64,000 nt of DNA from positions 5,274,001 through 5,338,000 of the forward strand of contig NC_135054.1 of the NCBI RefSeq assembly GCF_051014685.1. The letters run 5' to 3'. The notes beneath the pieces were generated by a model. That model saw only the letters and a list, made by a program, of their open reading frames with translations. It did no database searches and was not told where the DNA came from. The DNA comes from Ptiloglossa arizonensis. Its lineage: Eukaryota; Arthropoda; Insecta; Hymenoptera; Colletidae. Position 1 is the stretch's first letter. Each line of letters starts with the position of its first letter. A program made the translations under genes and the position numbers. This document shows positions 34,698-64,000 of the stretch, in pieces.

Positions 34698-37600
34698 ATG
34701 AATACCTTCCGCATTGGTATTTCAATTACTGTTTTTATTCTACTCGTCGCTGGAAATCGAATTGCATATGGAAACGTCGATGATTCTGCAGGTAATTCAA
34801 ACAAAAATACAAATATTAAAGTATAATAAACACATCTTCATTCGACTCCGATTCATTTCGACAAATTTCCAACAAGTGAATCGCGCTTCTCTCGCACCCT
34901 GTACTCTTGCACGCATTCATTCCCTTCCATTCTAATCTTTAACTTTTAGTCTAAGGTTTAAAGTCTTTTACACCTTATTTCGAACACCCTCGTCTACCCC
35001 AAACACTTCACATTTTCTCCCAACTATGCGCAAGACCATCTGTTCCCACGCATTACTACATAAACAATCAGAAATACTATGTTATTTGTCGTCTAACTGT
35101 GGCGATCGTTCCACAGATCGCCTGCAAAGGTAAATGTAGTAATTATGCACATATACCGTGGATCAACACTTGTGGTACAAATGGAGTCATGAAGATTCAG
35201 TGACTCAAAATAAAACGAAAGTATAAAATTCGTGCTGAGTCGAGCAATATACTCTACTTCACTGTAGGGATGTTGGCTTCTTTATTTACTTGATGGTTAG
35301 AGTGTATCGTTCTGCTTTCAGGATGGATCTTTTGTTCTGTCATCTTTCTATGATTCTGATGTCGAATTTATGTTTTAAAATATCCTTACAAGCTTCATTG
35401 TACAAAAAATGTAATGCGTTCATCCTCGGTATTATTATTTTACCCATTTTCTAGTCTTATTTTTTACATTTATAAAAGAAATGCATCCATCTCATTTCCA
35501 TGTGCTACTATATTCTTCATCTACATAATTCTACCTTAAATATATTATAATTTATATATATTTATTTATATGTATCTATATTTTAATATTTGCACAAGAT
35601 AACGAAAAGAGTCCTAGCATACTCGACTATCGACTGCCAACGACGATCATTCCCAACAGTTATAGCATAATACTTACACCAGTGTTGGAAAATGACTTCC
35701 AATTCGAAGGATATACATATATCAACGCTTTTGTACAAGAAGCAACCGATACTATAACGCTTCATCGTGGACGAATTAACATAACTGTAACGAGTGTCAC
35801 AGCTGACGGAATTAAGAAACAAATTGTAGACATGAAATACAATAGTATTACGGAGAAAATTGAAATTAAACTGGAGAAGGTTCTAGAGAAAGGACTCAAT
35901 ATTTCCATCAATTTTGATTACGTGGCTTCACTCAGAGACGACATGATCGGATTTTATAAAAGTTCGTATATTGACTCTACGGGAAAAATTAGGTAAACGT
36001 TTTACATAGAATCATTTGTCTATTATTTTATTCCCTAACGCTCATCGTGGCATTAGTATTATATGTAAAATTTGTAAAAAATAAGTTGTACAAAAGCTTC
36101 ACAATGAAGTATGGTTGCAGATGGCTTGCCTCCACGCAATTTCAAACAACGCACGCAAGGCATGCTTTTCCATGCTTTGACGAACCGAGCTTCAAGGCAA
36201 TATTTAAAATCAGAATTTTTAGAGCAGAAGGATATACTTATCTTAGCAACATGCCACATAATAACATAAAAATGTAAGTATTTAATATCAATTGTTTATT
36301 ATAAATTATTATATCAATAATTCGCAAGAATGTTAATCGACATATTATTATTAAAAAATTACACTTTGCGAATAGAATTATACAAAATAATAAGCTATTC
36401 TGGTACAATGAAAGAAGAGATAATTAGCAATCAAAATAAGTCAAATACGCAGATATCATTATTTCAATTGGATTAGATCTGGGTTATTTTGTAGCAAAAT
36501 CTCTAGGAACGTTAAACTATTGAACGTTGAAATAATGATAAGCATTATTTGCTTACAAATTGATGATTGGAAAATTTTGAGTTATTACATATGAATACGT
36601 TCCTAACATTTTTTTTTTTCGAAATTCGAAAATATAATAAAGTTATAGAATATTTCCGAGTACATGTATCTCGAAATATGTAAATTCGATACTTGTAATA
36701 GAACAATAACCAAATAAAATGTATAATATATTTTTAGCTTAGTAATCTGCTTGTTGTTACAGCAACGTGGATGAGAACTGGGAGGAATTTAAAGAAAGTA
36801 TTCCCATGTCGACTTATTTAGTTGCTTTTATAATTTCGGACTTTGCTTCTGTGGGAACGGACAGCTTCAAAGTTTGGGCCAGACCTAACGCCATCGATCA
36901 AGCTAAATATGCTTTGAGCATTGGTCTACAGGCTCTCGATCACCTATCTAAATTGTTCAAACAAGAGTATCAAATTTCCAAGATGGACATGGTGGCTGTA
37001 CCTGATTTTTCAGCCGGTGCAATGGAGAATTGGGGCCTTATCACATATCGAGAAAGTAGATTGCTATACGATAAAACTGAATCGTCCGATGTTGCACAGC
37101 AAAGCATTGCATCGGTGATTGTTCACGAATTAACACACATGTGGTTTGGAAACCAAATTACACCTGAATGGTGGAGCTACTTATGGCTGAGCGAAGCATT
37201 CGCTAGATACTATCAATATTACGGCACTGCACAGGTAATAGTGATATTTATTTACTCCGTCGCGCTCATTCCCAAACAAATATAATATAAAACTAACTTC
37301 GTCATTTTTGGTAGCGTAAATTAAATTAGTACACGGATTAAATGAGGATTATTCATCGCTCGAATTATAATTTCAAATCATTTTTATTTTGAAAAATAAA
37401 TTACATGAATATGTTCAGTTTCGAGGGATTGGTAATATTTTAAAAAGATAACATCCTGAAAATGAATTTTAAAGGTAGATTTCAAGGTTATTTTCACTTC
37501 AAATGGGACATAATATTTGTTTTCATACAATCTTGTAACTGCGTAAAAGAGGGATTTAATATGTATAATGATTCGATTTTAGAATGACATTAACTGTAAG

Positions 37601-40600
37601 TATTCATAACAACTGACAATCGCAAAAAGAATTGAATAAATACAGTAATAACCGTTTTCAAATAACAAACTCGGAACCGATGTTTCGTTTGAAAGCAAAT
37701 TCCTTATCCCATAAACACGATAAATAATAGTAATGTCCAGTTGAAAGAATGAAATTAGACTGATTTACAAAATCGTGTTCACAATATAAAATTATTTTAT
37801 CGAAACGGAATTTACAATTTTCTTTGATCTAAAAATCTTATGTACAAAATTGTACTCAGAACATTATGAGAAACTCATTTTCTAGATCGAAAAATCATGG
37901 AATATGGAGAAACAATTTCTCGTGGAACAATTTCAAACTGCTCTCGCTGTAGACGGTCTCGAATCTTCTCAGCCAATGACACGAAATGTTTCCAACTCGG
38001 CGCAAATAAGCGGAATAGGAGACACTATTACTTATAACAAAGGAGCAAGCATTGTACGAATGATGAACCTTGTTTTTGGGCAGGATGTTTTCGATACAGT
38101 ATTACAAAATTACCTCAAAAACAAGTAATGACCAAATTCACTACAATACAGTTGTGCATTTTCTGTTTCCCAAAATGAAGTTGTTATTTAAATTTTAACA
38201 TGGTTTTGAACATCATGGTAACCAAACTATCCAATTGCTTATTGATGAATTTTAACGTAATCGAGCAGTAACTATTTAATAACCACATACTTGTGATGTG
38301 GCAATAATTTTAAAAGAATATATTTTTGGAAGTAAATTTTTTGGCAGAATGTTTTTGCTAATAGTATTTGTACATAAAAAAATTGTTTACAAGTACATAT
38401 GAATCCATTTCATTATAATTAACTTTCGAAACTAAGATTGCATACCGTATACGAGTGTATTATAGAAAGAAAGGAAGGTTACTCCTGGCAGGAATTGCGA
38501 ATTGCATTGAGTCAGATGTTTTAGCCAGCCTTCGTAAGATCTACAATTAAACAAACGTGAATCGATGCTCTCCATATTATTCCCTTTACTTGGGATACTA
38601 CGATACAAATCTTTCTTCTCAACCCAGGATCGATCTTACTTTCTCCCTGGAATACATCGTATCGATGCAATTCGACTTACGTAGAAAGTTTTCGAAACAA
38701 TTAATTCCATAAATTGAGGACTTACTATACATTCTTCAAAAACTTACACGACAAACAAAATGGTGTCAATTTATAAACGGATAACTGCACAATATGAAAA
38801 AATAATTTAATGGATCTTTAGTACATAAACAATGTAATATGCGTCTACCGTAGCAAAGAAAATACCGTGGCGCGTCCAGAGAATTTGTGGGAGGAACTTC
38901 AAGCCGAAATCAATCGTCGAAACAAACAACTCATTTCATCTGTGGATAAAATTATGTCCACGTGGACGAAACAATCTGGATTTCCGGTTTTAGATGTTTC
39001 TATCCAGAAGGGTGTTGCTACCATACAACAGCAGCGTTTCCTTTTGAGAAACTTAAAATTCACACCAATAAATGGAACATGGTTGGTACCCATCACATGG
39101 GCCAGTAAAAGCAATCCAAACTTTGATACTGTAAATGTAAAGTATTGGCTGGACAAACAAAAATCCCAGTTTGAGTTGGGCACAGGTTCAGAATGGGTGA
39201 TATTAAACGTCCAATCAGCTGGTGAGTAGGAGTACATAAATTACATATTGGCAACTAAATGATTTAAATGTTTACCAATTGGCAAAAATAGTCGGATTTC
39301 TAGGCATTCTAATTGTGTATAGGATTTCCATACTAGGATTTCTATTATAGGATTAGTATAGGAAGCCCGTTTAGAAAGATAATTAACTCAGAAAATTTAC
39401 GAAATAAATGAAACTGAATCGATCGAGTTTTAATTTACTCTAGAAAGAAAAATATGGAACACAAAAGGCAGAAATTGATATAGCAACTGAGATCAATTTT
39501 TAAGTGATACCATCATTTAAATAAATTTAAATTTGATACAAATATATAATAGGAAAATATTAGAAAACTGTTGTAAACCATTTTTAGTATATCTCTTAAT
39601 TTTAATCTTAGTAAAAAGTGTACCTTTCTACCTCATGTCACACTTGTAACAGTTTTCAAATTCTATTCTATTAAATTTAACGATTTACACTTCAACATGT
39701 AAACATTCTATTATAATTTAATGCCTGCGCAAAATGTAAGATATTTTCTTTATTTAAAATGATTGAATTAATTGATTTTCGCTCTACTAGTTTAGATTAA
39801 TATACAATGGAGTAGAATGTGTACTACATTACACTAAAAAAGAATCATAAAATTTGGTGTAATGCAGATTATATGTGGCTGTCCATCCGTATAATATAGG
39901 TTCTCAAAACACATTCTAATGATTCGTGTTACTAAAAAAATAGTGATAAAAATGTGACATAATTACAAATATAAGATATAATTTATTAAAGTGTAATGCC
40001 TTGAGTGTTGCATTGTTTACATCAGCAAACAACATTTTATGGACCGTTCAGACCATCTTGATAAGATATGAAATATTTTAATATGTCGTATACTAAATAG
40101 CATGATAAAATATTTTTTATCTTTCGAGTGGTACCTAATTATCGTATATAGTGCGATTATTATAATTATATACCATAGGCCATCAATGAACTTTTTTCCA
40201 ATAATAATGTTTGTAATCTTATGGATGTTTAAGTCGTATCTCATAAATGTATACAATGAATTGCAATAACGTGAACCATTCTTGACGGTCTGAATGGAAA
40301 GTCGTATGAAATTGTTCCGATACTCAACGTGTTAATGATAATTAGTACTATTGTAACGTAGCACTAATTAGTAATAAAAAGATTCTTTTACGAGATCAAT
40401 ATGCTATTAATAAAATTACAATTCTCAAATTATAGTTCTGTTAATCGCAATACTATTTTCTAGGTTTCTATCGAGTGAATTATGATAATGCTTCTTGGTA
40501 TCATATTATCGACCTCTTACGTAGTAAAGATTATCAGGATATAAATGTACTTAATAGAGCTGCCTTGATCGATGATTTGTTGAATTTAGCAAGAGCAAGG

Positions 40601-43600
40601 TTGCTTCCTTATAAAATAGCATTGGATGGCTTGCAGTACATTAAACAGGAAACAAATTATTTGCCTTTTAAGTCCGCTTTTTCAGGACTCACACATCTTG
40701 ATCAACGTTTGTCCGGACACGATGAATCTTACGAGCATTTGAAGGTATATTAAAATGATACGGATATAGCTATGCTTTTATATTATCGTTAAAAAAATAG
40801 GATATTATGCTGTATACATCGTGTCAAGTAAAAAAGTTTTTATTTTCTTTTTTATAAAGACATAAAGTAATTATCTTATTTGTGGAACCATATTGTATAA
40901 AATTGTAGAAAATAACTACAGAGTTTGATAACGTTAGTAATCAAGGGATAATTGTTACAGGAATATGTTCTAATACTTCTCAATGACAAGTACGAAGAAA
41001 TCGGGTACCTGGACCGTCCGAATGACGACAGATTAACAGTATTATTGAGAAGTGAACTTAACAAATGGGCTTGCTATTACGGCCACAAAAGATGTATGGA
41101 GACTTTTACACAAATGTTCCAGCAATGGAGGGCAAACAAAACTTTAAGGTAAGAAAATGATAAAACTTACAGTGATATTCAATAAACGGCTATTAAAAAA
41201 AGAACCCACTCATATTCATTTTTTAAAAGAATTCGATTCACTTCAAATATTATTCTTGGCATAACAATCGTTTAAAACATTTTATAACTATATTATATGA
41301 TCTTTAAAACTTAAAAATAATAATGCCAAGGAAAGTGATCTTTTAAAAATCATGTTCTTCCTTTGAATTTGAACAACAATCATTAACGTTATTTTTTTAT
41401 ATATTTTAAAGAAATAAATATTATTCACAGAGAACTTTATCGCCGAGAAAGTTTATTTTAACAGAGTATTACTACAACTGAACTTCCTTTATTTAACTAT
41501 TAAACTATACGATGTTATTTTCGTAGAATTAAACCTAACCAACGAGCCGTAGCATACTGCACAGCTATTAAGCATGGAACAAAAGATGATTGGGAATTTT
41601 TATGGGACCAATACTTCAATTCTAACTATGCTACTGACCAATCAGTTATACTGCAAGCTCTTGGTTGCACTGAAGATAACAATATTCGGAAAAGGTAAGG
41701 ATTCTCAATTTAAACTCAAAACGCGTAATGCGTTACAGTTATTCAATTTCATACCGTTATTCGAAGTAAATTATTTCAATAGCCTCTGAACGTTAATTAT
41801 TATATCAATTTAACATTTATGGGTCTCTATGATATTCATATTATGTTGTGTTTCACAACATTCGTCTATCTTGTAGAATATTTCTGAAGCGGGCTCTCAT
41901 AGAAACCGAAAACTATAAACTGAAATTATAATTCACACTCAGAAGCTGTTTAATTTGATTTCTGGATGAGCCATTTAAATTACGAATCACTATTACAATG
42001 TAATTGTTTCAGGTATCTGTCGTATGCACTGATGAGTTTCGAAGAAAGCAGAATTCGTAGCCAAGACAGTATTTCTGTATTTTCTGCGGTTTATGGTTCC
42101 AGTGTGTCTGGTGCAGAATTTGTGCTAGATTTCGTTGATCAATATCATACGAATATGACAAAATAGTACGTTTACGACATAAAAGAAAATACATTTTTTT
42201 TCCTCGCCGATCGAAAGTAAACATTTTCTATTCATTATTAATCCGTTTCTATGTATGTTTCAGTTACAAAGGAACGAATACAATTGTTAGTATCCTGTCA
42301 TCAGCCTCGATACGTTTTTCAACGCAAAATTTGGTCGACAAATTTAAAAAATTAATCAAAACGCACGAAGTACCATTCGTGGATAGTTTAGATTCTCTGA
42401 AAAACTCGCTTGAAATAGCAGAATATGAATTGAAATGGTTCAAAGACTACAAGGATCCGATTATATCCGAGATAATCGATTTCAATAATAAACACAGTAC
42501 ACACGATGCTAAAAATTATCGCCTACCTACAAACATAATTCCAAACGCGTACGTAATCAATGTGACGCCGCATATTAATGAATCTGACAACTTTACATTT
42601 GATGGAGAAGTGAACATTTCTGCTGCAGTAGCAAACAAGACAAACAGTATTGTTCTACATTCGGCAGAGATAACAATTCATAATGTTGTCATTTCGGTAG
42701 GAAACGATACGTTCGAAATCGTGAAGAAAAATTTAACTGAAGAATATAATTTCTTCACAATCGAGCTTGCTCAAGAACTGCAAGTTGGAGCTACTGTAAT
42801 TATTAAGATAAAATATACGGGTTATCTAAACGAAGAAATGCGTGGATTTTACAGGAGTTCATACGTGGACGTTAACGGTAAAACAAGGTGTGTTAAAAAG
42901 TAAATGTATTTATCTATTCGACAAAAAACACCTTTGTTAAGAATACTACCGATTACATATATAGTTGCACCGTTATCGTTTATACCGTACGATAAATGCG
43001 AGATTAGCTCACTTTTTCATTTTGACGCTGCACATATAAAAAGGAAAGAAAAGTGTTGGTAATTACAAAATAAATTAATAGAGAATTTATACACAGTGTT
43101 AGAGAGAATCCCGCCACCTTGCGATCATTTAGTTTCCGAAATTCATGCATTGAAAAATTAAAATGGTTCTGGGTACGTATATACCCTCTTTGTTTGATTC
43201 TCGCGTTCTGAATTTATTGTTCAAACGAATCCCATCGATAACGAGACAATCTGCATAAAGGTCATAAACGGGGTACTTTATGTTTTCAAAACAAGAAGAA
43301 GGACATTGCTTATGGAATACCACGGTGTTAATATCACGATTATTTTTCTGTTTGGCAGATGGTTAGCTTCCACTCATATGGAACCAGTGGCAGCTAGAAA
43401 AATGTTTCCTTGTTTCGACGAACCAGCACTGAAGGCAACGTTCAAAATGAGTGCCACAGTACCGAAAGGTTACAATGCCATTAGTAACATGCCAATTGAA
43501 AATTCAATTCCACACGAGTATGTAACTCTACTTTTTCGATATCTCTCCTTTTTAAACAGTATTTTCAACTGCATTGTTCGAACCGTGCATCGAATAACTT

Positions 43601-46600
43601 TTTGAAATTTTGGAATTCTATGCAAAACACGCTTTTCTCTATAGACAATAATAAACACTTCGGAATTGTCTAATAATAATTCATCGTCGATATTTACTGT
43701 ATAAAACATCTTACTAGTAGTCAGCTTTTACATTAAATGATGTATAAACGACTTAATTGGTTATTCGTACGCAATTATTTATTAATTTCGTTCGATTTCA
43801 ATATATAATTACAGTAGCGGAGAAACGACTATCACCTTTGAAAAAACACCTAAAATGTCCACATACCTAGTGGCTTTAGTGGTTTCCGATTTTACTCCCG
43901 TCATTGATGAAAAGTATAAAGTGTGGGCAAGACCGAATGCGATTTCTCAAGGGAAGTTTGCTTTATCTATTATGGGGAAATTAGTGAGCTATTACGAGGA
44001 TACACTGAAGCTTCCGTATCAACTTCCGAAGCTCGACATGGTGGCGTTGCCTGATTTTGCATCGGGTGCAATGGAAAATTGGGGCCTGTTAACTTACAAA
44101 GAAAGAAACGTGTTATACGACGACTATGAATCGACCATTACAGTCAAACAGAGCATCGCTAATGTTATATCGCATGAAATCTCTCATCAGTGGTTCGGAA
44201 ATCTTGTCAGTCCTCTGTGGTGGAAGTATATCTGGTTGAACGAAGGCTTCGCTAGGTATTATCAGTACTTTGGGACCGCTAATGTACGTATAGACAAACT
44301 TTTAACATATCAAGTAACCTATTTAAGTAATGAAAATCCCAAACAATTGAGCACTTCGAATAAGTTAAAAACTTATATGGAGATGTTACAAATACATGGT
44401 ATTATCAAGAATAAATATACTCTGTTTATTCTTATACACAAAATGCTCACCTTTCCAACTTACGAAAAAGTGTCGATACAAGAACATTCTTGCAAAGATT
44501 ATCGTTTTAAAAGTCATCGCTGTTTCTTTAAATAGAACTACATGTTTTCCTAATACGTACGTAAAAAAGAAATTAGAAACAAATTAAACAATATACATTT
44601 AAACGGGGCAGGAAATATTTAATATGATAAATGTAGTAAATCTAACGACACAACTTGAAAAAACGGATACAGTTTAACATATTGTGACCATGGAGTTCTT
44701 GATGTTTAACGAACATATAAGTAATTGCGGAACTAACGTTATAATTCAAGAATAAAATTTCAATCATCAGGTGATGAAGGATTGGTCTCTGGAGTCTCAA
44801 TTTGTGGTGGATCAACTTCACTCGGCATTGGAGGCAGACAGTTTAGCATCCAGCCATGCTATGACCCATGATGTGTACAGTCCAACAGAAATTAGGGGAA
44901 TGTTCGATACAATATCTTATGCTAAAGGCGCCAGTGTAATACGAATGTTGAGACAATTAATTGGTCCCGAAGTATTCCATAAGTCTCTTAAAAATTATCT
45001 AAACAGTCGGTAAGTCTTAAACAAAATTGACCTCATATTGTGTTTTAAACAAAATAGTTCTTAACTTTCGATATTGACATTAACTCACAGATTTATTGAG
45101 GTATCTCCCACTAGTAATTAATGGAAACAATTACTGGGTTTATTATTTTTAAATTTAAAGAGCAAAAATTAATACCACTATATTTCATTACTATACGAGG
45201 CAAATTATGTAAAGCGTTGTAAGATATATTCTTCGAATGTATTAAGATCTACTTTTAAAGAATTTCACTTTTCGGATATTGAATTCTTCGTCAATCGCAT
45301 GAAACTAGAAATAGCATTTCACTGAATTTTTTAACTGTTCATTTCACACGAGTATGTGCGCTTTAATTTTGTAGACGATATGATGTAGCTCAACCTGAAC
45401 ACCTGTTCGATGCTTTCAAAGAAAACATCATTGATGAAGAAACTCGGAATTCGTTCCACGATATCATGAATACATGGACCACACAGCCTGGGTATCCTGT
45501 TGTTCACTTTAGCATTCGAAATCAGTTTTTGCATCTCAGACAAGAAAGATTTTTCATCGAACAAAAAACAGATACTTCCCCTGAACAGACTTGGTACGTT
45601 CCAATCACTTGGACATCTCTTGAGAATCCAAATTTCGGTAACACCACACAAAAGTATTGGTTCAAAAAGACGAACGATAGCATCGTTTTACCAGATAGCG
45701 AATCAAAGATTTTCATATTCAACGTGCAACAAACTGGTAAATAAAGAACTGAGGCTATGTTATTCGCGACGACGAGGTAAATATATCAAACCTGATACAA
45801 TGAAAACTATTTCCAGGCTTCTATCGTACGAATTACGATGATAATTACTGGCGAGAGATTATACATTTCCTGAAGACAGAACGGTATAACAAAATTGGCG
45901 AGATCAACCGTGCTGCAATTATCGATGATTTGATGAATCTTGGTAGAGCGGGATACGTCAACTACGAAATCGTTTTATCTGCAACACAATATTTGACCAA
46001 TGAAACTAGTTACCTCCCATGGCGTGCGTTCTTCAACGGTCTGACCTATCTGCGCAGACAGTTCCAAGGAAGGGAGGCATTTAACGCTTACAAAGTATTA
46101 TATTATATATCACAGTAGTACCCAGATAACTGAAACAATTCCTCCCCAGATATTTGAAACGAAATCATTCCCACCACCGTTCAAAGCGATGCCACTCATA
46201 TATGAATACTCTTACACTTATCAGTGTTTTCGCAAGAGTATTATTAATAGGTTGATAAAGTTTTCGCGATAAAAATAATTTTGAATACAATTTTATTGGG
46301 ACTATTTGTAATTAAACATGGCTGACAGTTTTTCTGAAATTATTCGTACAAAAGTCCGAATATGATTGTTTGGTCTTATTTTAATCAATTGCTAATGCGA
46401 AGACACTATGACAAATTTAAATGTTCTTATTTTGTATTAGTGGTTTTGCATTTCGTTCCCGATATCCGGGAAGTACTCTATCGACTCGCTATAATGTACT
46501 TGACGTACATTGAATTCTAGAATCATAAAGGCTATTCTTGAATCACGTTACAGAGATATATAAACGCACTTGTGACACCAATATATAATTTGCTCAAATT

Positions 46601-49600
46601 TGAAGACCAAGAAAGGGATACACATGAAACAAAGTTATTGAGAACGTACGTTCGCAAATGGGCTTGCGAAATGGAAGTGTCTAATTGCGAGTCTGTTGCA
46701 TCGTTATACTTTACAATGTCGCAAAACGGCAGTATATCAAAGTTAGTATTAAGCATTTTCCTTACAGAACAAAATTTCTGTAAATTGAAATACTCAAGCT
46801 TGAGAGAACGAGTACGCTGGTGTGTGCAAATAACAAAATTGTTGAAAAATGTTGATTCTAAAATTACGTTTTCTATACAGGGTGAGACGTAATTTATAGT
46901 ATAAACAATTTAAAAAGACAAGATTCGTTTTTCTGTACGATGTTCATTTTTCGAGAAAATGGAAAATTTGTAGAATATGACTATAGTTGACGAAAATATT
47001 CGTTTGCAATTCGTTGTTTCTGTTTCTGTTTGTTCAAATTGACGATAACGAGATTGTAAGAATCTAAGAAACTAAATGTGCTTCTTAATAACATTTTCTT
47101 CTATACTACCAATGATCTGAAGTAACAGAGCTGGATATAAATTGTGTTCCAGTGGAAAAATAATACAATGTATTAAAGTGAAAGGAAATTTGTAACTTTG
47201 TATTACTTTACCAACATTCAAATTTTGCTAATTTTATTGTTCTTTTTTACCTTTTCTAATTTATGTGTTATTTTCATTGCAAAAACTTTCAAGTAAAGGC
47301 GTTACGTAAAGAACTTAAATGCTTATTACAGATTTAAGAATGGAACACAATTAAGTTACGTTAATTAAATTACGCAACACGTTGCAATTAAAATATCCAC
47401 TTCTCAGTTTAAATTATACTTTACGACTAAAATACATTCAGGTTTATGAATGAAGAATTAATATCTCGAATATTTATGTGTATGCAAATAAAATTATAAT
47501 ACATGTCGGATTGAAATCTTTTCACAGACTTCCACCGAATTATCGCAGTGTATCTTATTGTACAGTTGCTAGAACGAATCCTCTTGAACACTGGAAAACT
47601 TTATGGAAACTTTATTTGCAAGCAAAAGTCACTACGGACAAATCAGTAATTCTTCAGTCCTTAGCTTGCACTACGGAAACATCTTATCTTAATATGTAAG
47701 TCTACTTCTATGAATTATCACAGATTCGTTTCTGTTCCTCACGAAATACATATTTATTTTACTTTATTAAAGACTGCTGGAAAAAGCTATTACGAAGGAT
47801 TTCGACATACGATTCGAAGATAGCTCTAGTGTATTTTCCAACGTTATCGCAGCCAGCTTAGAGGGTGTTGATTACGTAATGGATTTCATTAAGAATAATT
47901 ATGTCAAAATAATCAACTAGTAAGTAAAGTAAAGTTCTTTCTATTTTTGTAACGGTATTAAAGTATTATTTTATCGTGCAATTTCAACAGCTACAAAGAT
48001 GTTTCGACAATCAAGACTATCCTAAACGCTCTTGGAAAAAGACTATCTACGGATGAACTTTACAAAAAGGTAATTAATAGTGTTTTATAGTATAATAATT
48101 TCGTATTCCATTTCACACTGGTACAATACTAACTTTAAAACGATTGCCCGAGTACAGTAAACCTTGTTAAGTTGAACTAATAAATAGGTATTGAGAAGGA
48201 GGGGGGAGGTACAATTGGAGAAGGGTGCTCAAATTTACACAAACAATAGTTAAGAAATTTGTATACTCTCGTAATCAGTTCATGATTTCTTAATAAGTAA
48301 TATTTTTGATGCAAAGAAGAATATGAAAATATAAATTTGTTAATTTTTCTTACGACTGCCATTCTTTTGCAAGATACACTGTGCCTTTGTTTCAAACATT
48401 TTCTGATTTACAACAGAATGTCAATTATCGGAAGTAATAGTAATATGAGATTAATCTATAAGAAGATCAACACAGTTAAGTAAGAGTTAATCATTAACAT
48501 TATATGTAACTGAATGTCATTTTAATGCAGTCTATAATGCATGTTCAGTGTCAAGGTTTTGTGGAATTCTAGGCTAAATATTTCGATATTACTATTACAT
48601 ATCTTTCTCGTTAAACAAAGTTTAAAAAGTACCCATTTTATTAACATACATAGCTTATTGGTACCGACATATACTTTCCCATTACGCCCAAAGACTTCTA
48701 TTGTAAAATATTTTATAATCATAAATTTCTATGAACTGAAAATTGTGTTTAATTTATGCGAATTCACACAGAAGAACTAAAAATCTTTACATAAGTACAC
48801 TGCATTCTTTGTTATTCTAAATACTTGCAAAATTGTACGTTATAGGCATTGTATAAGCTAAACAAATTCAAATACTACGTGAAGTGCCAAATAGTGAGAC
48901 AGTAGAATGTAGCACGATAATCCCTGATTAAATTGGATATCATCACTGTGCTTTAAATATTTTTACTAGAAATTTCCTTTAATTGCAGTATATCGATTTG
49001 GTCACTTGGCTTGGCGAAAAAGACCTATCGTTTAAAAGCTCTTTAGAGAGTTACAAAAATCGTGCAGGTCACGAATTAAACTGGGCCGAAAGGTATATTC
49101 CGAAACTACACGAATGGATGGAAATTAATTATCCAGATCCGAATTATCGTTTACCACTACTGTATTCTCCGTGGAAATACAATATTTCGCTCGCTTCGTA
49201 CTTCGAAGAGAAAAATTTCACTTTCAACGGTAATGTTCAAATAACGATGAATTGTCTAAGAAGCACATCCCGGATAGTCCTCAACAGTCACGAACTGAAA
49301 ATTAATAAAGTGTCAGTCTACAAAAGCAATTCGAATTCGATTAAGGTTGAAGCATTAGGTATAAGCAACTTCGTGACAAACAAAGACACACAAACACTCA
49401 TAATATTCATGGAAAAGATTGTAAAGAGTGGTGAGATAATTATCGACATTGAATTTACGGGATATCTGAACGACAGATTGCAAGGCTTTTATCGCAGTTA
49501 TTATTTCAACAGCAATGGGAATATTCGGTTAGTAAAATATAAAGAATTATTTAAATATATATAATAACATCGAATAAATATGTATTTGTGATATTTGATG

Positions 49601-52600
49601 TTTGATGTTCTGCAGCTGGTTGGCCACGACTCAGTTTGAACCAATTTATGCTAGAAGTGCATTCCCGTGTTTCGATGAACCGTCTTTTAAAGCTACGTTT
49701 GAAATTAACATCGAGAGGCCTAAGGGATATATTGCACTTAGCAATATGCCCAGTGTCAAAGTATCACCATCGAAGTGAGTATGTTAAGCAATGCAATAAA
49801 TTCCATTACCAGGTATTTTAGGTATTAGATAAGTATTGGCATTTGAAACACAGAGTATCATTAATTAAGCGGATAGTCTAGCCTCGGAGTTTCAAAAATC
49901 AATATTCCATGAACCTTAGATTGCTAGGAAATTCATAACTTGCATTATTTTAAAAAATATATTATTTATAAACTTTTAAAAATAGAATATTGAAATCCAT
50001 AGTATTCAACATACATGTCCTTATGTTAATCTAACATCTGTATGTCCATCCTTTCGTATACTCTCTATAAACTTATAACCATTTTGATTATGACTTCAGT
50101 GATCCGTATCGTGAATGGACAACATTTAAGGAAACCGTAAAAATGTCATCATATTTAGTTGCGTTTGCTGTTTGTGACTTCCAAAGCGTTAGAAATTTAA
50201 CGAATAATTCAGTAAATGTATGGGGAAGACCTGATATTGCGCCAAGAGGTGATTACGCACAAATTGCTGCCATGCGAATGCTCACTGAACTGTACTTAAG
50301 TACGGGCATTAAATACACTTTACCGAAACTGGACTTGATAGGAATCCCGGACTTTTCCATGGGTGCTATGGAAAACTGGGGTCTTGCCACATTTAGGTGA
50401 GTCACGTTGAATAACAAATTTAAACATGTTAATTACATTGACTTAAAATGTGAAAACTACTAAGCATTAAATTCAATGATTATTATAAATGAGAATGATA
50501 CAGAATCGATGTCAGCCCCTAAATTATAATTTAATCTCAAACAGCATCGAATATATATATATATATATATATATACGTATGTTGATATCAAACAGAATCT
50601 GTACCCATTTCATACCATCACGAAATTATCGATACAGATTTGATACTTTTAAGAAACTATTAATGCCAACTTTACAATCCCTCGAAAGTACCATTTTGTA
50701 TCCACCAAGTGATGTGTCTTCGAAAATGTTGTTTCGTACCGAGTAGATTTTATTTTTTAATTTTAATACATTTACAGTTTATCTATGCGTGTTTGTATAT
50801 AACACTTTGGTACCAATTTTTAAAACAAACACTCCGTAATTTGACTATCAAAGAAAGTCAATTTAAAGTTAAATAAGAAAAAAAAATTAAACAAACAAAA
50901 ATATGATACTATTACAAAGCACTTTAAGAAATATCCTAAATTTTAGCTCAGTTTGTTAAAGAAATATAAATTGAAATTAAAAACCGCTCCGTGTCGTTCA
51001 AAGGCGAATTTTTCTTAAAGAAGGAGACGATTCTAGTCATTTAGAAGTTGCAACGATTCTAGTCATTCAAAGGCTGTGCTGATTTCAATTAACGAATATT
51101 ATTTCCTCGTTTTATCCTTCATTCTCTGTTCGAATAAGCTTAAGGGACAATCTGAGTAAGGTGGCTACAAGGCTACAATCTGTGGTGTACTTTGCACAGT
51201 AAGAAACCTTAATTTTGACGCTTTGCTATTAAGCGTTTCTTGTAAAGACTTTGTGCTAGAAAATCAGCCAATAAATTCTGATTTTTTTTAATATAAAATG
51301 TTGTATCTTTTCGTCCGAAAGGTTATCAATACCTGTGCTAGTAGAAAAACATTTTATAACTGTTGTGTCCCCTGACTATACGAAATGTTTACAATTACTG
51401 GGCGGAGTTGAGAAGTTAATCTCTGAAAGAAATTCCGAATCGTATTATGTCAGACGTTTTGTATCTTAAGTCTTGGGAATAAGTAAAAATTCAGCTCTCA
51501 ATTATATTTGATATTCAATAACTTATTTTCAAATTATCGTACACTCTTCATATTTAAGGGCCTACGACTAAGATTTGTTACTATTTTTACCAATGTATTT
51601 AGTAAAATGTACAATTGTCTCCACAGAGAGTACGGGCTCTTTTACGACAAACTTCAATCAACGGCTAAAAGCGTCGATTATATAATCACTATAATAGCAC
51701 ACGAACTTGCTCACATGTGGTACGGAAATTTAGTTACTTGTAAATGGTGGGAATATATTTGGCTCAACGAAGGTTTCGCCGAATATATGCAATGGGAGAT
51801 TTCTAATTCAGTAAGTTTCAATACAATATTCTTAATTTAAATGTTTTTAATATCCAATTGATTTTATACGAATCTGTTACAGTTCAACTATAGCCACGGT
51901 TTTAAAGATCTTTTCGTTGTTGACGAATTGCAAATTGCGATGCTGAACGATGACTACAATTCATCACATCCTATGAACTATCCGGTTAGCAAACCATCCG
52001 AAATAGTCAATGTGTTTGATAGTATTACGTATGGAAAATGTAAGTAGTTATTCAATTTGTGTGAGTATTTAAAGTTTGATATTATTGCATTCAAAGGAGT
52101 ATGAGAACTGTATTCGATTACTCGGTACGTCAACATTACCAATCAAAAGTTAAAGTACGTCTAGTAAATGTCTAGATACATACAGTACGCGTCAGAGGAG
52201 ATTACATTTGAAATTGTAGTAGGTCCTATTCATTTAAGGACCATCTCCTCAGACGAGTAAAAAATAAATATATACGTATGTGTGCATCTCGTTTCTATCT
52301 GAGAAAATTACCTTTGAACGAATGGGATCCCTTATATCGTCTTTGTACTTATTACTTTGTGAGCATATCGTGTATTATTTATATGTTACTGTCAAATCTT
52401 TTAAGCGTACCATCTGAATTAATTATATCCTTATTTTTGGACGTGTATGAAGAAGAAAAAAGAAAATATTCTAGAAACTTAGAAATGACATTGATTAAGA
52501 GACAGACTATATATACTATGTATATAGAATTAGGAAAATTACTCTATAGTATGGTTACCTACTACTACATCGTCGATGCAAACACATAGTTTTTAAAGGC

Positions 52601-55600
52601 TTTAATGACACGTATTTAATAGACAGCTGTCATGCTGGGGGACTTTTCTAAAGCCATGTATAGCGAAACGAAAAATCGTTGCTTAGAATTAAAACAATAT
52701 AATATTATCAAACAATATATTATATATATATATATATATATCGCCTTTGTGTAGCTTTATCATATGCTAGTCATATTTATAAATTTGGTCTTCATGATCA
52801 CAATTCCCTAAAGGTATAAGTGACAGCAAAAGTTTTATTATGTATACCTTATTTATTTACTTATATTCATCGACCTATTTTTTTTACATGTATGAAAATT
52901 AACCATTTCATAGCATCCAGTGTAATACGGATGATACATAATTCGTTGGAGGATGGGATTTTCACAATAGCGATGTACCAGTACCTGATTCAAAATCAAT
53001 ACAATAATACAACTCCAAAAGACCTTTGGGATGTTTTCGATCGCACGATCAAAGAAAAAAACGCTCTTGGAAACTGGAACATTTCTATGGAAACATTAAT
53101 GAACAGTTGGACCAATGAAGCAGGATATCCGGTTGTATTTGCAACATTGAGCGACACTACAATAACACTATCTCAGGTATTATTTTGTCAAAATTACTTA
53201 AATGAAGTATTAGAACAATATACAAGGTGAACCGTATAAAATGGTCTAACATTTTTTCAAGAAATATTACGAAGAGAATTCTTCGTTGGCATTTTTTTAT
53301 TCATTAGCGATAACCCGAGTAACAAAGGAGCATGCACATCAACTCTTTTAAATGGTATGGAATATCATATTTGTAATTTTAAAAAGTTCTTTTCAAAATG
53401 ATAAGCATTTATTTAACATGTTTCTTCATATTTTATTTAATTTCTTCATGTTTATTCATATATTATTTGTCTTCATGTTAGTTACAAGATGCAAGGAGTA
53501 AAAATATCTATAGTTCATGTGCTAAACAATTGCACCTAGAGTTATAGCAGGTTTTATTCGAGCCATTTCTTTAGTCACGTACATGTATTAAAGAAACTAT
53601 GATAACGTTAATAACTATTGAAAAACTAAGGAAAAACAATGTTTGTTACATTCGTTCTTTAAAATCGTCAAAGTCGTTTTCTATGCATTTCTTTTATTTT
53701 GAAATCCCAAGAAGATATCTAAACTTTCTATAATTACAACAAAATGTGTTTGCACCATTATGATAATGAATATTAAATTGCTTGAAAATGTTCTCATATG
53801 TATCGTCTATCCATGAGAAGGCACAGTTGTGTTTATATACCCCCTCTAGTTACAGTCCCATTAGTTATAATTCGCAGGAGTATTAGCGTAGCCCTCGAAT
53901 GAAAATCGAAACAGAATGATTTCCTTCCTGTTTATATATTACCGTTGAGTCGGTGAAATTCTCTTAATGAAAAAAAAATTCAATTCAAAGTCTTTAATAA
54001 TCATTAATGTTTTAAAACTCATTCATAGCTAAAAGAATTAATTTGTATTTATAAAAAAATAATATAAATCTATTTAAAAAGTCATTTCCATCTAAATAAA
54101 CTCTGCATAACTTTCGTAATCGTAAACCATCATTCGAGCTTCACTTTCTTGATTAAAAACAAGTAATTACAACTCATGCTTGATTCTCTAATTAAATCCT
54201 ACCTAATCTGTACGATTATTGCTTATTTGTTCTCAAGAATTATCAGTACGCATAATTAGGATTCACTTTAAAGCCGTCTATGTAGTTATATCTTATTGTA
54301 GTTAAATATTATCTTATTTAATATTTATTAAATCTAAATAAGGTCAAAAAGTAGAATATCGAATTCGTCATAAGAGTGATTGTACTACACAGCTACTATT
54401 GTAGAAATAGACACAGTAATGTAAACAACAGCAAAATTTATGGTATAATTTTCAGATATCATTTATATGTAATTATAAATTTATAATCATTTTCATTAAA
54501 CGGATTGTAACAAGAACTTTTTATAGTGACTCATTAAACTTATATAAAGTTCTTCTGTATGTAGGGAGACCTATGTGAAGAATACTTATAACAATTGCAT
54601 AAATTGCTTCTTTCAGAAACGTTTTTCACTATACCAGAAGAATGATCCCGCAAATGTTTACTTTTGGATACCAATTACAATAGCATCTGCCTCCAATTTG
54701 AATTTCATAACAACTAAGGCAAACATTTGGTTGGGACAAGAAAGTTTGAACATTTACCTTGACAAATCGAACGAATGGTTTCTCTTAAACGTTCAACAGA
54801 GTGGTTATTATCGTGTCAACTACGACACCATGTCATGGTTACGTCTGATTGAAGCATTACATCAGTCCAACTCTTACAGCTCCATCCATGTGACAAATCG
54901 TGCTCAAATCATTGATGATCTTTTGAATCTAGCTCGCGGAAAGTACGTGGATTATACCATTGCATTTAATGGTACGACGTACCTCTTCAATGAGATGTAT
55001 TATCCGCCATGGAAAGCATTCTTCAATGGCATGAGTTTCATCTTACAGCGTTACGAAGGTCACGAAGATCGTGAACGACTTCGACAGTATATTTTATATA
55101 TAACGTCTAAAATATATGGACAACTAGATTTTACGGATTTTCACTTCAATTCACAATGGACTCTATTAAGCAGAGAACTTATTTTGACTTGGACGTGCAA
55201 ATTCGACGATACGAAATGTGTGGATACGTCTAAGAATTTGTTCACCACTTGGCGCCAAACTCTTAATAACAAGTAAAAATTTCCACCTTCTTATATTTTA
55301 GCACCATAATATCAAAGTAGTACCGCTATACTTTAATTTACGTTAGTTGGATGACATTCTGTGACATTATAACAAATGTTTGTATGGTAAACCAATATCA
55401 GCCAAATAGTATTTCATGATTTGTCCTTGTTAAAGAAATGTTAAGCTTCCACTTAAGAAAAGAAAGTATTGTCTTTTGGTAAATATTTTGAAACTTATTG
55501 CGATTAATACAGTAACATTAATACTTGGTTATATAATAATTTCATATTTGTTATTTCTTTAAATATTTTGCTTAAATTTTTTTTTTCTTACTATTTTCCT

Positions 55601-57682
55601 TTGAAAAAGTAATGAAAATACAACTGATTTATTTTATTAATCTACTGTAAAAAATTGACAAGAAAAGTTTTTCGAAGTTCATTAATATTCTTTTTTATTG
55701 AAATTGCATTTTCTTTTTGTATGATTAATACTTTATTCCTAAACAACATTAAATGCACTAATAAAACAAATATAAGCTACAAACCACTTTTTAATTTAAA
55801 AATGTAACTTTTTACATAATATTGAAGCTGGTAATTATGTGTTACGTGCACCATTTGAAACATGGTTTTGTTTCAAATACTTTTTAACGTATTCTAGCAT
55901 TGATAAGGTTCTTAAATTTGATTTAAATATATTTAATGAGGTTCGTTAATGAAATTGCACCTCAGCGCAGTCCATTTAAAAACAATAGTACAAAACAGAT
56001 ACATATAGACGAAAGAAAGATAAAATCACTTTCGTGTATTGTTTAATCTTCAGAATTTCGCCAAACGCAAGACCAGCCGTTTACTGTACAGCCATGAGAT
56101 ATGGATCCAGTGAAGATTGGCGTTTCCTGTGGAATCAGTACCTGAAAACAGATTTTGCTTCAGAAAAAAAGATCATGTTAGATGCTCTTGGGTGTACAAA
56201 GGATAAGAATATGTTACAGACGTAAGTCTAAAAGATTATTCATACTATTTACGAACTGGAAAAATTATATTCCAAATCGAGACTTTCAAATATGGTATTA
56301 TACAGAAAGACTCTTTGTGTAATTGTTAATTGTATAAATATCTAACCGTGACTTATTAAATAGCCATAAACTAATATCCTTGAAATCGTAAGATATGTAA
56401 GTTCTTCTAAGAAGATCTCTTTTTCTTCCTCTCTGAAATCGTCTCAAACGTATTGGACTACAGGGAATAGAGTGACTCACAAAAGTATTTGAACCCTTAC
56501 CACAGAATACTTTCTTGAGTACAATATGTGCGATATATATGAAACTTTTTAAAATATTATTAACCTCGTAAGTAGATGCGACTACCAAGATTACACAAAT
56601 GAAGCAAATCCGTAAATATATGTAAGAATTTTATACATGTATATAATACATGTGTATATATATTTATTATAAATATATATCATAAGTAGGAAAGAATATA
56701 TATAATTTTATACATGTATTTATTAAATTTCAAAAAATTATATATCGAATAATAATAACAAAAAAAAACGTAAATCGTTGTAAATAAAAGACAAAAACTG
56801 TGTGTTCGATACTGTATAAACAACTTTCTTGATCTACTTCAATTAACAATTATAAAAACACTCTTCGTGAAAACTTGAAAACTTTGATTTCACTCTATTA
56901 TTCTTTTGTTTCGTTGCAGGTACATTGAATATGCATTGAATCGTAATTACATTTCCAACATTCGAAAGCAGGATGTCAATGCGGCACTTTCTTCCATCTA
57001 CAATGCTGGACAATTTGGACTAGAAGTGATGTTGGAGTTTTTATTAACAAATTATGAAAAAGTCTATGCATAGTAAGTGATCAAATAATAAAAGGAGAGT
57101 TGTTTTCAGTCAGAGAATGTGACGGAAGCATCATTACATATAGATACATATATATATATATATATATTTATTTATTTATTTATTTATCTTTCAGTTATGG
57201 TGAGTGGGAAAGTGTTGGAGCATTGTTCTCTAAGCTAGCATCTCGCATCTCCACTACAAAACAAATTAATCAGGTACTTTGACTGTATCATTATATTTTT
57301 TGAATCTTTAATATATCTATTCGCTGTCTTGATTCTTCAATGCATGAAGAGCTTCTTGTTTCAGAAATGTTAACGTGTTACTTTCAACTTTAATGCAGTG
57401 TTCACCGAGTAAAAAGTGTATTTTCTTTTGCAGCTCAAAGATTTTATAAAGACTAGAAAAGAAGACACCTCAAGTATTTCATCTGCGTTAACTTCCGCAC
57501 TTGCAATCGCAGAAAAGAATTACGACTGGTACACGGACTCTCATAATCAAATTGATACTTGGTTGGATTGGCACTATAATAGATATATTAAGACCAGCGG
57601 AAGTGGTAGGCTCGTAGCAAATAACTTTAGTATAATTCTCATGATTATATTTTCACTAATCGTGTACACATTTAGTCGATAA
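34698..57682 (+). CDS. Gene C: giant three-unit M1 aminopeptidase, GPI-anchored (31 exons, ~2708 aa)
   Basis: Exons: 34698-34791, 35599-35992, 36121-36273, 36763-37234, 37886-38124, 38854-39221, 40464-40744, 40961-41148, 41527-41694, 42013-42165, 42264-42887, 43359-43517, 43815-44283, 44771-45009, 45375-45736, 45817-46094, 46554-46741, 47528-47695, 47773-47919, 47991-48069, 48989-49527, 49616-49774, 50100-50396, 51627-51810, 51883-52039, 52914-53176, 54617-55272, 56054-56221, 56920-57072, 57195-57273, 57434-57682. All introns are GT-AG and the phases add up to one 8127-nt frame. There is one signal peptide (residues ~1-25, exon 1) and one C-terminal GPI-type signal (TSGSG ~2680-2684, then a hydrophobic tail). 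Between them lie three full M1 peptidases at about 42-910, 921-1790 and 1793-2680. No stop, signal peptide or anchor signal lies between units. This is about three times the usual family length. Confidence 0.88.
35599..42483 (+). CDS. Gene C, unit 1: complete M1 aminopeptidase domain set
   Basis: This unit covers residues ~42-910, from YRLPTTIIP to the last helices of the ERAP1_C-like domain. It has PCFDEP, GAMEN 299-303, HELTH 335-339 and third zinc ligand E358 in [11 protein letters not shown], where the family consensus is [16 protein letters not shown] carries the catalytic-type Tyr. The active site looks intact. Introns found in gene B after the GAMEN segment and at YxK|G are absent here, so exons 36763-37234 and 37886-38124 are fused forms. 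The last part is encoded by the exon that also starts unit 2. Confidence 0.88.
42264..42887 (+). CDS. Gene C junction exon 11: end of unit 1 fused to start of unit 2
   Basis: One uninterrupted 624-nt exon encodes the C-terminal helices of unit 1 ([31 protein letters not shown]). It then gives a short linker ([14 protein letters not shown]), then the N-terminal start of unit 2 ([17 protein letters not shown]) through to GFYRSSY. There is no stop, no hydrophobic anchor and no new signal peptide between the two. It also merges two exons that are separate in gene B (the Y|YK exon and the last exon). This is the direct genomic evidence that units 1 and 2 are one polypeptide. Confidence 0.93.
42514..49135 (+). 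CDS. Gene C, unit 2: complete M1 aminopeptidase domain set
   Basis: This unit covers residues ~921-1790. It has PCFDEP, GAMEN 1182-1186, HEISH 1218-1222 and third ligand E1241 in [21 protein letters not shown] carries the catalytic-type Tyr. The exon plan matches unit 1 position for position in the peptidase part, which suggests intragenic duplication. Differences are at the end: unit 2 keeps a separate 79-nt exon (47991-48069) where unit 1 has fused it. The active site looks intact. Confidence 0.88.
48989..49527 (+). CDS. Gene C junction exon 21: end of unit 2 fused to start of unit 3
   Basis: This 539-nt exon encodes the terminal helices of unit 2 ([28 protein letters not shown]). Almost without a linker, it continues into the unit 3 start ([18 protein letters not shown]) and on to GFYRSYY. 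The normal family C-terminus ends right at the xxWL/xEW helix. The two folds must therefore be joined nearly end to end. Confidence 0.93.
49142..57682 (+). CDS. Gene C, unit 3: complete M1 aminopeptidase with GPI signal
   Basis: This unit covers residues ~1793-2708. It has PCFDEP, GAMEN 2062-2066 ([10 protein letters not shown]), HELAH 2098-2102 and third ligand E2121 in [10 protein letters not shown]. The Tyr motif reads TYGKSSSVIRM, with Ser replacing the usual Gly-Ala. Its exon plan differs from units 1 and 2. It has introns after the GAMEN segment and at YGK|S, as in gene B, and a unique intron at SQ|KRF. It lacks the introns at G|YYR and before the helical-domain segment, giving one 656-nt exon. 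The tail after TSGSG is hydrophobic ([16 protein letters not shown]), a GPI-type signal. Confidence 0.88.
50550..50575 (+). repeat. (AT)n microsatellite in gene C intron
   Basis: A perfect AT dinucleotide run of 13 units in the intron after 50396. Confidence 0.95.
52715..52741 (+). repeat. (AT)n microsatellite in gene C intron
   Basis: An AT dinucleotide run in the intron after 52039. Confidence 0.95.
53893..54088 (+). mobile_element. Solo arm of the foldback family, copy 3, in gene C intron
   Basis: About 195 bp match, in order, the right arm of the element at 25779-26430. The sequence begins GCGTAGCCCTCGAATG, contains GAAACAGAATG and TTAATGAAAAAA, and ends near AATAATATAAATC...GTCATTTC. 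The end pairs with the GAAATGAGTAT left terminus of copies 1 and 2. Only one arm is present. It lies in the intron 53177-54616 of gene C. Confidence 0.6.
57146..57187 (+). repeat. (TA)n then (TTTA)n microsatellite in gene C intron
   Basis: A TA dinucleotide run merges into a TTTA run that ends just 7 bases before the acceptor AG at 57193-57194. It forms most of the polypyrimidine/AT tract of that splice site, so its length could affect splicing of the 79-nt exon. Confidence 0.9.
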
Positions 57683-63251: not shown

Positions 63252-64000
63252 CTAGAAAAACAGGACCAAGATGGACACGTAAATTTGGAAACGTCTAATA
63301 TTCTCATATAAACGAAGTAGTTTAGAACTTTAACCGAGACAGTGCACAATGTGTTCGATAATAAAACGAAAATAACAAAATTACGTTCGAGACTTTATTT
63401 CCAAGTTGTTAGTGTCAGAAGTGAAGAACGTGTACTATTGTCAGCACTCGAACGTCAGGTAACTCACGAATAGGAACAGTGTCAGAGTCAAGAAGAATTT
63501 TGTACCTACTTACTCGTAGTCGACATAATAACTTACAATATTACGCGTTACTGTTATATTTATTTCCAAAATTACACAAGGAATCTAAGAACCATAAAAC
63601 GTAAGATACCAGTATCATATTACTATCGTATTCTCCCACTTCAGCCAGAATATGACACTATACCTACATACGTGGTGCGTAGCATTTTGAAGCTTCCTCA
63701 CGACGGAGACCAGAGGTGGACAAAATTTGTATCCACATAAAAATGTTGAGTAACGAATGAAAAATTAACAACTTTCCCCCGTTATTTGTTGAATGGAAAT
63801 TAAAATTCAAATTATAGAATGAAATTTTTCGTAATGAACACATAAAAGTTTAGCTGCTGTCTTTGTCTGATAAAGTCGCTGTCCTGTGATGGCTGTCTCT
63901 TTAACTTTACGTGGTTTTCTGGTAACGTGGGCATTACGTGGAAGAGAAGGAACGGCTAGAAGAAGAATTAAACGCTCGAGGGACCCTAATTCAGAATCGT
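63252..64000 (-). other. Upstream intron of gene D (incomplete)
   Basis: This intron begins at the acceptor before FYRVNYD and runs past the end of the window. No further coding exon was recognised in these 749 bases. Confidence 0.6.

What the first reader, a model, noticed from the sequence alone, without database searches (positions are those of the whole stretch)
34698..57682. One gene encoding three complete M1 aminopeptidases in series (~2708 aa)
Seen: 31 exons join in a single phase-consistent frame with one signal peptide, three sets of GAMEN and HExxH-x18-E motifs, and one terminal GPI-type signal. Known: M1 aminopeptidases are normally single-unit proteins of roughly 900-1000 aa. Inferred: a tethered three-catalyst exopeptidase on the cell surface that could trim peptides processively or with three different specificities. 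I cannot tell whether similar multi-unit proteins are already described in related insects.
Basis: partly seen in the sequence, partly recalled or inferred. Interest (0 to 1): 0.92.

Follow-up and report, generated by a model that had tools for sequence, protein, structure and literature searches.

The report
Three-in-one aminopeptidase gene of Hymenoptera
A bee gene appears to encode three complete protein-trimming enzymes in one long chain, and the same chain is listed for many bees, ants and wasps, where databases hold it without a described function.

Summary
31 GT-AG exons give one 2708-aa frame with three Peptidase_M1_N / Peptidase_M1 / ERAP1_C sets, one signal-peptide-like start and one GPI-like end. 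Both unit junctions lie inside single exons (42264-42887, 48989-49527), without signal peptide or anchor between units. An assembly or gene-model artefact is very unlikely: the 61 database proteins I analysed, 55 of them with hymenopteran names from sawflies to bees, carry the same three units in the same order, and five unnamed-source proteins lie on contigs with at most 1.1 kb beyond the coding length, so are probably spliced transcripts. The units are old paralogues: u1, u2 and u3 each group across Hymenoptera, not by species. Catalytic residues are kept in nearly all; unit 3 lost the catalytic Glu in two Vespula, one Odynerus and one Prorops protein. Tightly joined multi-unit M1 proteins of other lineages look like separate origins. 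So it is known as database entries ("putative aminopeptidase-2"); in the listings of nine text searches I saw no paper describing it. Three tethered sites of differing specificity is the best reading; activity, processing and tissue are untested.

The parts
34698..34791 (+). exon 1: start codon and signal-peptide-like sequence
   Evidence: hydropathy
35599..35992 (+). exon 2: unit 1 M1_N
36121..36273 (+). exon 3: unit 1 M1_N
36763..37234 (+). exon 4: unit 1 catalytic exon, GAMEN 37016, HELTH 37124, x18-E
37886..38124 (+). exon 5: unit 1, catalytic Tyr motif DTITYNKG
38854..39221 (+). exon 6: unit 1
40464..40744 (+). exon 7: unit 1 ERAP1_C
40961..41148 (+). exon 8: unit 1 ERAP1_C
41527..41694 (+). 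exon 9: unit 1 ERAP1_C
42013..42165 (+). exon 10: unit 1 ERAP1_C
42264..42887 (+). exon 11: junction exon, end of unit 1 ERAP1_C in frame with start of unit 2 M1_N
43359..43517 (+). exon 12: unit 2 M1_N
43815..44283 (+). exon 13: unit 2 catalytic exon, GAMEN 44065, HEISH 44173
44771..45009 (+). exon 14: unit 2, DTISYAKG
45375..45736 (+). exon 15: unit 2
45817..46094 (+). exon 16: unit 2 ERAP1_C (weak donor, chosen by homology to unit 1)
46554..46741 (+). exon 17: unit 2 ERAP1_C (donor chosen by homology, not top-scoring)
47528..47695 (+). exon 18: unit 2 ERAP1_C
47773..47919 (+). exon 19: unit 2 ERAP1_C
47991..48069 (+). exon 20: unit 2 ERAP1_C
48989..49527 (+). exon 21: junction exon, end of unit 2 ERAP1_C in frame with start of unit 3 M1_N
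49616..49774 (+). exon 22: unit 3 M1_N
50100..50396 (+). exon 23: unit 3, GAMEN 50362
51627..51810 (+). exon 24: unit 3, HELAH 51700, x18-E
51883..52039 (+). exon 25: unit 3, catalytic Tyr motif DSITYGK
52914..53176 (+). exon 26: unit 3
54617..55272 (+). exon 27: unit 3 ERAP1_C
56054..56221 (+). exon 28: unit 3 ERAP1_C
56920..57072 (+). exon 29: unit 3 ERAP1_C
57195..57273 (+). exon 30: unit 3 ERAP1_C
57434..57682 (+). exon 31: end of unit 3, GPI-type tail, stop

Best explanation
A single gene of a bee (probably Colletidae or close kin) encodes a ~314-kDa ectopeptidase made of three complete M1 aminopeptidase units in series, secreted through one signal peptide and held to the cell surface by one C-terminal GPI-type tail. 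It is the local copy of a gene shared by Hymenoptera. Shown by sequence: the gene structure, the conserved order, the conserved active-site residues. Inferred: the units arose by duplication of a ~10-exon block in which the last exon of one copy (minus anchor and stop) became fused to the second exon of the next (minus signal peptide). Inferred: the three sites act side by side on peptides at one cell surface, each preferring different N-terminal residues, so that one tethered molecule trims a wider range of sequences than one unit could.
For: 31-exon frame with both junctions inside exons, aligning to six relatives with 10 gaps of 6 aa or more in all. Three Pfam M1 sets. The 61 database proteins I chose for analysis all carry u1-u2-u3 in that order. 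122 of their (and the window's) 126 junctions passed a coverage filter: 0 of 122 hold a hydrophobic stretch (15-residue mean hydropathy >= 1.6) or a furin motif R-x-K/R-R; the median gap between unit matches is 8 aa (u1-u2, 61) and 3 aa (u2-u3, 59). Comparison: 19 of 35 other multi-unit records have at least one such stretch between units, as merged neighbouring genes would (that they are merged is inference). Five unnamed-source proteins of 2685-2729 aa (P0046, P0052, P0057, P0068, P0080) lie on contigs of 8358-9155 bases, 258-1058 bases beyond the coding length; a sixth, P0086, on 10801 bases is less telling. The six catalytic residues (GAMEN Glu, H, E, H, E, Tyr) are complete in 62 of 63 u1, 62 of 64 u2 and 58 of 67 u3 segments, some misses being fragments. 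Unit-specific residues near the site: human APN position 472 equivalent is Gly in 54 of 63 u1, Phe in 60 of 64 u2 and 59 of 67 u3; position 351 is Ala in 59 of 63 u1, Ser in 47 of 64 u2, Met in 35 of 67 u3 (APN numbering and pocket role recalled). Intron positions and phases: unit 2 shares all 9 of unit 1; unit 3 shares 6 with unit 1 and 7 with unit 2.
Against: No RNA or protein data for this species. Three ant records of 924-929 aa (P0165, P0167, P0168) hold unit 1 alone and end at the junction: split gene models, or real unit-1-only transcripts. The catalytic Glu of unit 3 is lost in P0084, P0089, P0093 and P0097, and unit 2 is also broken in P0097, so not all three sites are needed in every lineage. 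Positions 350 and 351 vary within u2 and u3, so the unit signatures are not strict. The GPI reading is uncertain: of 56 proteins tested, 49 have a hydrophobic start and 48 a hydrophobic end, and a few (P0043, P0072, P0100) end in a membrane span with a basic tail. No signal-peptide or GPI predictor was run.
Confidence: 0.82

Rival explanations
1. Polyprotein: one mRNA and one chain, cut after synthesis into three ordinary ~100-kDa aminopeptidases, of which only the last keeps the anchor.
For: Gaps between units vary in length (1-127 aa in u1-u2, 0-12 in u2-u3), and two are long and Ser/Thr-rich (P0043, P0056).
Against: Furin motif in 0 of 122 junctions, a dibasic pair in 23 of 122. By eye no shared linker sequence that could serve as a cleavage site in the 36 proteins printed. 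Other proteases cannot be excluded.
Confidence: 0.12
2. Only one or two units matter as enzymes; the rest are spacer or binding modules, as in other multi-domain ectoenzymes with a dead copy.
For: Unit 3 catalytic Glu lost in three vespid proteins and one Prorops copy. Unit 1 is better conserved than 2 and 3 between the window and Bombus (70, 55, 54%), though not against Venturia, Orussus or the two sawflies, where unit 2 is equal or slightly higher.
Against: The six catalytic residues are intact in all three units of the window and in nearly all other proteins analysed.
Confidence: 0.2
3. Artefact: three tandem genes merged by assembly or gene modelling.
For: M1 genes do lie in tandem here (two single units at about 2990-9782 and 12979-22207, one on the minus strand from about 60435), and records that look merged exist for other insects.
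Against: Junctions are inside exons with no anchor, stop or signal peptide; same order in the 61 database proteins analysed; full-length frames on contigs barely longer than the coding sequence.
Confidence: 0.02
4. Alternative transcripts: the gene makes both a soluble unit-1-only form and the full three-unit form.
For: Ant records of 924-929 aa ending at the u1-u2 junction in two Camponotus and one Pogonomyrmex species.
Against: These may be split gene models; Pogonomyrmex barbatus has the three-unit form (P0078). In the window the junction exon is unbroken.
Confidence: 0.15

Closest known systems
Hymenopteran 'putative aminopeptidase-2' / 'uncharacterized protein' records of ~2700 aa (Hylaeus anthracinus P0038, Colletes gigas P0039, Bombus affinis P0042, Nasonia vitripennis P0087)
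   Same: Same three units, order, tight junctions and catalytic motifs; 45-67% identity over 98-100% of the length.
   Different: Sequence divergence. Colletes latitarsis P0037 is modelled with two further upstream units joined through anchor- and signal-like stretches, probably a merged gene model.
Sawfly four-unit proteins (Athalia rosae P0054, Cephus cinctus P0043)
   Same: Contain u1-u2-u3 as a block.
   Different: One more N-terminal unit (u0), sister to u1+u2 in the trees.
Single-unit aminopeptidase N, animal M1 family (PDB 9uep, 4fyq, 4fke; 4wz9, AGAP004809-PA)
   Same: Unit 1 matches over residues 1-863 of 869 (E 1e-156 to 9uep); units 2 and 3 were not searched there.
   Different: One catalytic unit per chain.
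Tightly joined multi-unit M1 records of molluscs, Lingula, Tachypleus, Ornithodoros, Calliphora, Bradysia (P0099, P0105-P0107, P0111, P0119, P0135, P0142, P0144)
   Same: Three or four M1 units with gaps of 5-42 aa lacking a hydrophobic stretch.
   Different: Their units group within their own lineage in the trees. Matching first or third units to the hymenopteran ones was tested and rejected only for Calliphora, Tachypleus and Ornithodoros. Several lack a hydrophobic C-terminus.
Somatic ACE and carboxypeptidase D (recalled, not tested)
   Same: Membrane-held exopeptidases with repeated catalytic units of differing specificity, one sometimes inactive.
   Different: Other peptidase families.

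Membership tests
M1 aminopeptidase (APN type), each unit | Peptidase_M1_N, Peptidase_M1 and ERAP1_C domains | tested here: met
   three stretches of each
M1 aminopeptidase (APN type), each unit | GAMEN and HExxH-x18-E | tested here: met
M1 aminopeptidase (APN type), each unit | catalytic Tyr | tested here: met
   Y in u1, u2 and u3 of the window
M1 aminopeptidase (APN type), each unit | measured aminopeptidase activity | not testable with these tools
   needs expressed protein
Hymenopteran three-unit aminopeptidase | u1-u2-u3 order in one frame | tested here: met
   trees
Hymenopteran three-unit aminopeptidase | junctions without anchor or signal peptide | tested here: met
Hymenopteran three-unit aminopeptidase | single mRNA across all units in this species | not testable with these tools
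GPI-anchored ectoenzyme | N-terminal signal peptide and short hydrophobic C-terminal tail after small residues | tested here: inconclusive
   hydropathy only; no dedicated predictor

The most novel reading that the evidence does not exclude
Animals have several times independently joined M1 aminopeptidases into one multi-catalytic chain; in Hymenoptera three sites of different specificity have been kept together since before sawflies and bees parted, acting as one tethered trimming machine on peptides.
Probability: 0.35. Interest if true: 0.7.

Novelty: new member of a known kind. Interest (0 to 1): 0.5.

Why it matters
It is a large ectoenzyme conserved from sawflies to bees, ants and parasitoids, with no described function that I could find. 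Insect APNs are studied as digestive enzymes and as receptors of Bt toxins (abstract starts), so a three-unit form bears on hymenopteran biology. It also offers a natural comparison: three linked active sites with different neighbouring residues, one of them decayed in some vespids, and apparently separate inventions of the same layout in other lineages.

Tried and rejected
Artefact of assembly or annotation: rejected. An upstream remnant of the sawfly fourth unit: the two upstream single units do not group with u0. A second copy of the three-unit gene: none recognised among 20 and 32 genome matches, which are lower bounds. One ancient multi-unit ancestor shared with other lineages: for a fly, a horseshoe crab and a tick, matching third units (p-AU 3e-36), first units (5e-59) and the fly's third unit alone (1e-5) to the hymenopteran ones is rejected. 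Molluscs, Lingula and Bradysia were judged by tree only. The groups were chosen after seeing a tree, the quick LG+G4 model was used, and gene conversion inside a lineage could give the same picture. Structure prediction was not run: junction-spanning proteins exceed the length limit and one unit would add little. Rfam: no match at gathering score in the window. Pfam on eight other ORFs: none.

Papers: nine text searches of ten allowed; I saw listings and abstract starts only, and those (20 of 786; 10 of 25,317; 20 of 76) were capped. None of the rows seen describes a multi-unit M1 protein. (the last for 'putative aminopeptidase-2') returned no paper. In one search, PMC12813067 (Haemonchus H11) and PMC10343166 (PSA) matched one phrase each; listing only. 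Two papers were searched for terms: PMC12492102 has no 'aminopeptidase' in its main text; passages of PMC13127027 describe five mosquito APNs with GAMEN and HExxHx18E. Most subscription papers are not in the library.

Rows dropped: one search listed 120 of 181 hits; the other 61 were not seen. Of the listed rows that I took as hymenopteran I left out of the unit analysis seven shortened, two-unit or odd records (P0070, P0076, P0083, P0104, P0110, P0115, P0126) and four that look like merged neighbour genes (P0124, P0127, P0141, P0147), so the 61 were chosen for having three units. That the other 55 names are Hymenoptera is recalled, except Colletes. The trees use subsets: 201 units, 199 and 59 sequences.

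Full report
What is there. The window is a stretch of a 999-Mb assembly (G000:C7:5274001-5338000). I listed open frames, searched splice pairs in frame and joined 31 exons, 34698-57682: 8127 bases, one stop at the end, 2708 aa, GT-AG throughout. Ten of the 30 junctions are not the top-scoring pair and were chosen by homology, so the model leans on relatives; aligned to six of them it has 10 gaps of 6 aa or more in all, three of these within 8 aa of a junction. Predicted mass is 314 kDa. Pfam finds three Peptidase_M1_N, three Peptidase_M1 and three ERAP1_C stretches. Unit 1 matches solved aminopeptidase N structures over nearly its full length.

The junctions. Exon 11 and exon 21 each carry the end of one unit and the start of the next without interruption. 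Between ERAP1_C and the next YRLP motif there is no hydrophobic stretch, no stop and no signal peptide. Compared with exon 31 (end of unit 3 plus anchor) and exon 2 (start of unit 1 after the signal peptide), the junction exons look like an end exon without its anchor fused to a second exon without its signal peptide. That reading is inference. Unit 2 shares all 9 of unit 1's intron positions and phases; unit 3 shares 6 with unit 1 and 7 with unit 2. So the units most likely arose by duplication of an intron-bearing block, u1 and u2 last, which agrees with the trees.

Relatives. A full-length search returned 181 proteins, 120 listed. I chose 61 of these plus the window as the hymenopteran set: bees, ants, wasps, ichneumonoids, chalcids, Orussus and two sawflies by 55 given names, and six without names. 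In 52 of 62 the unit matches fall exactly as u1-u2-u3; the ten others also hold u1-u2-u3 and are the two four-unit sawflies, three models with extra upstream units, and five in which a unit was split into two matches. Over the whole length the closest are Colletes latitarsis, Hylaeus anthracinus and Colletes gigas at 66-69% per unit, though for unit 1 alone Bombus affinis reaches 70%; the trees place the window with Hylaeus and Colletes. The source is therefore probably a colletid bee or close kin (inference; family looked up). Five proteins of 2685-2729 aa sit on contigs of 8358 to 9155 bases, at most 1058 bases beyond the coding length, and a sixth on 10801 bases. A gene with some 30 introns would hardly fit in the five, so these are taken as assembled transcripts; I did not see the contigs themselves, nor the intron number of those species.

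A comparison for merged gene models. Neighbouring tandem genes merged by annotation should leave an anchor and a signal peptide between units. Of 35 other multi-unit records, 19 show at least one inter-unit stretch with mean hydropathy >= 1.6 and 16 show none. In the hymenopteran set 0 of 122 junctions do (122 of 126 passed a coverage filter; the flanks taken differed slightly between the two calls). In four of the 19 (P0095, P0127, P0130, P0153) the gap in question is over 240 aa and may hold part of a unit; P0127 has a second, 108-aa gap of the same kind.

History. FastTree on 201 units and on 199 sequences with single-unit proteins, and IQ-TREE on 59, all place u1, u2 and u3 in separate hymenopteran groups, u3 first, then the sawfly u0, then u1 with u2. 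In IQ-TREE the support is 100 for u2 and u3, 77 for u1, 98 for the hymenopteran units together. Holding the window's three units together is rejected (p-AU 4e-83), as is matching hymenopteran first or third units with those of a fly, horseshoe crab and tick. Reservations on these tests are in Tried and rejected. The common ancestor of sawflies and bees thus probably had at least three units in this order; whether the fourth was lost in the others or gained in sawflies is open.

Active sites. The six catalytic residues are complete in 62 of 63 u1, 62 of 64 u2 and 58 of 67 u3 segments. The misses are: one u1 fragment; one u2 fragment and one u2 of P0097; in u3, three fragments, two with the Tyr position missing (one of these an upstream gene), and real changes in P0084, P0089, P0093 and P0097. 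The totals include three segments of upstream genes in merged models. Residues near the site differ by unit: the APN 472 equivalent is Gly in 54 of 63 u1, Phe in 60 of 64 u2 and 59 of 67 u3; the residue before GAMEN is Ala in 59 of 63, Ser in 47 of 64 or Met in 35 of 67, so it is less strict in u2 and u3. That these line the S1 pocket is recalled from mammalian APN.

How it most likely works. Secreted, anchored at the far end of unit 3, three zinc sites in a row with different N-terminal preferences. Shown by sequence are the motifs and the single reading frame; the anchoring, the tissue and the preferences are inferred. Processive hand-over between sites is possible and untested.

Known or new. 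Database records already hold the protein for dozens of species, under names such as 'putative aminopeptidase-2'. Nine text searches showed no paper on it in the rows listed; the library lacks most subscription papers. Hence: a new member of a known, annotated but apparently undescribed family; interest moderate.

Noticed in passing
window about 2990-9782 (+): Single M1 unit with signal-like start, HAMEN in place of GAMEN and HEYAH; the frame ends without an obvious anchor. Groups with first units of an ant and a braconid multi-unit record. Exons not worked out.
   Followed up: partly
window about 12979-22207 (+): Single-unit aminopeptidase with its own signal-like start and GPI-like end, upstream of the three-unit gene; groups with the first unit of the Colletes latitarsis 4308-aa model. 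Exons not worked out.
   Followed up: partly
window from about 60435 to 63294 (-), continuing in L010 and L011: Conserved single-unit aminopeptidase N on the minus strand, nearest to Hylaeus anthracinus P0272; the locus is an M1 cluster.
   Followed up: partly
window 23843-25420: Stretch of longer open frames between the genes, no Pfam match in the four of them scanned; perhaps a mobile element. The genome copy count did not complete.
   Followed up: partly
P0165, P0167, P0168 (ants): Records with unit 1 alone, ending at the u1-u2 junction: split models, gene fission or a unit-1-only transcript.
   Followed up: partly
P0084, P0089, P0093 (vespid wasps): Unit 3 lost the catalytic Glu, to Val in the two Vespula and to Lys (with the first His also lost) in Odynerus, on long branches; Polistes P0085 keeps it.
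   Followed up: partly
P0043, P0072, P0100: C-terminus is a membrane-span-like stretch followed by basic residues, unlike the GPI-like end elsewhere: the anchor type may have switched.
   Followed up: no
P0117, P0142 (blowflies), P0099, P0105-P0107 (scallop, Lingula, oyster, mussel): Other tight three- and four-unit M1 proteins whose units group within their own lineage, suggesting repeated origins (of these only P0142 was in the test).
   Followed up: partly
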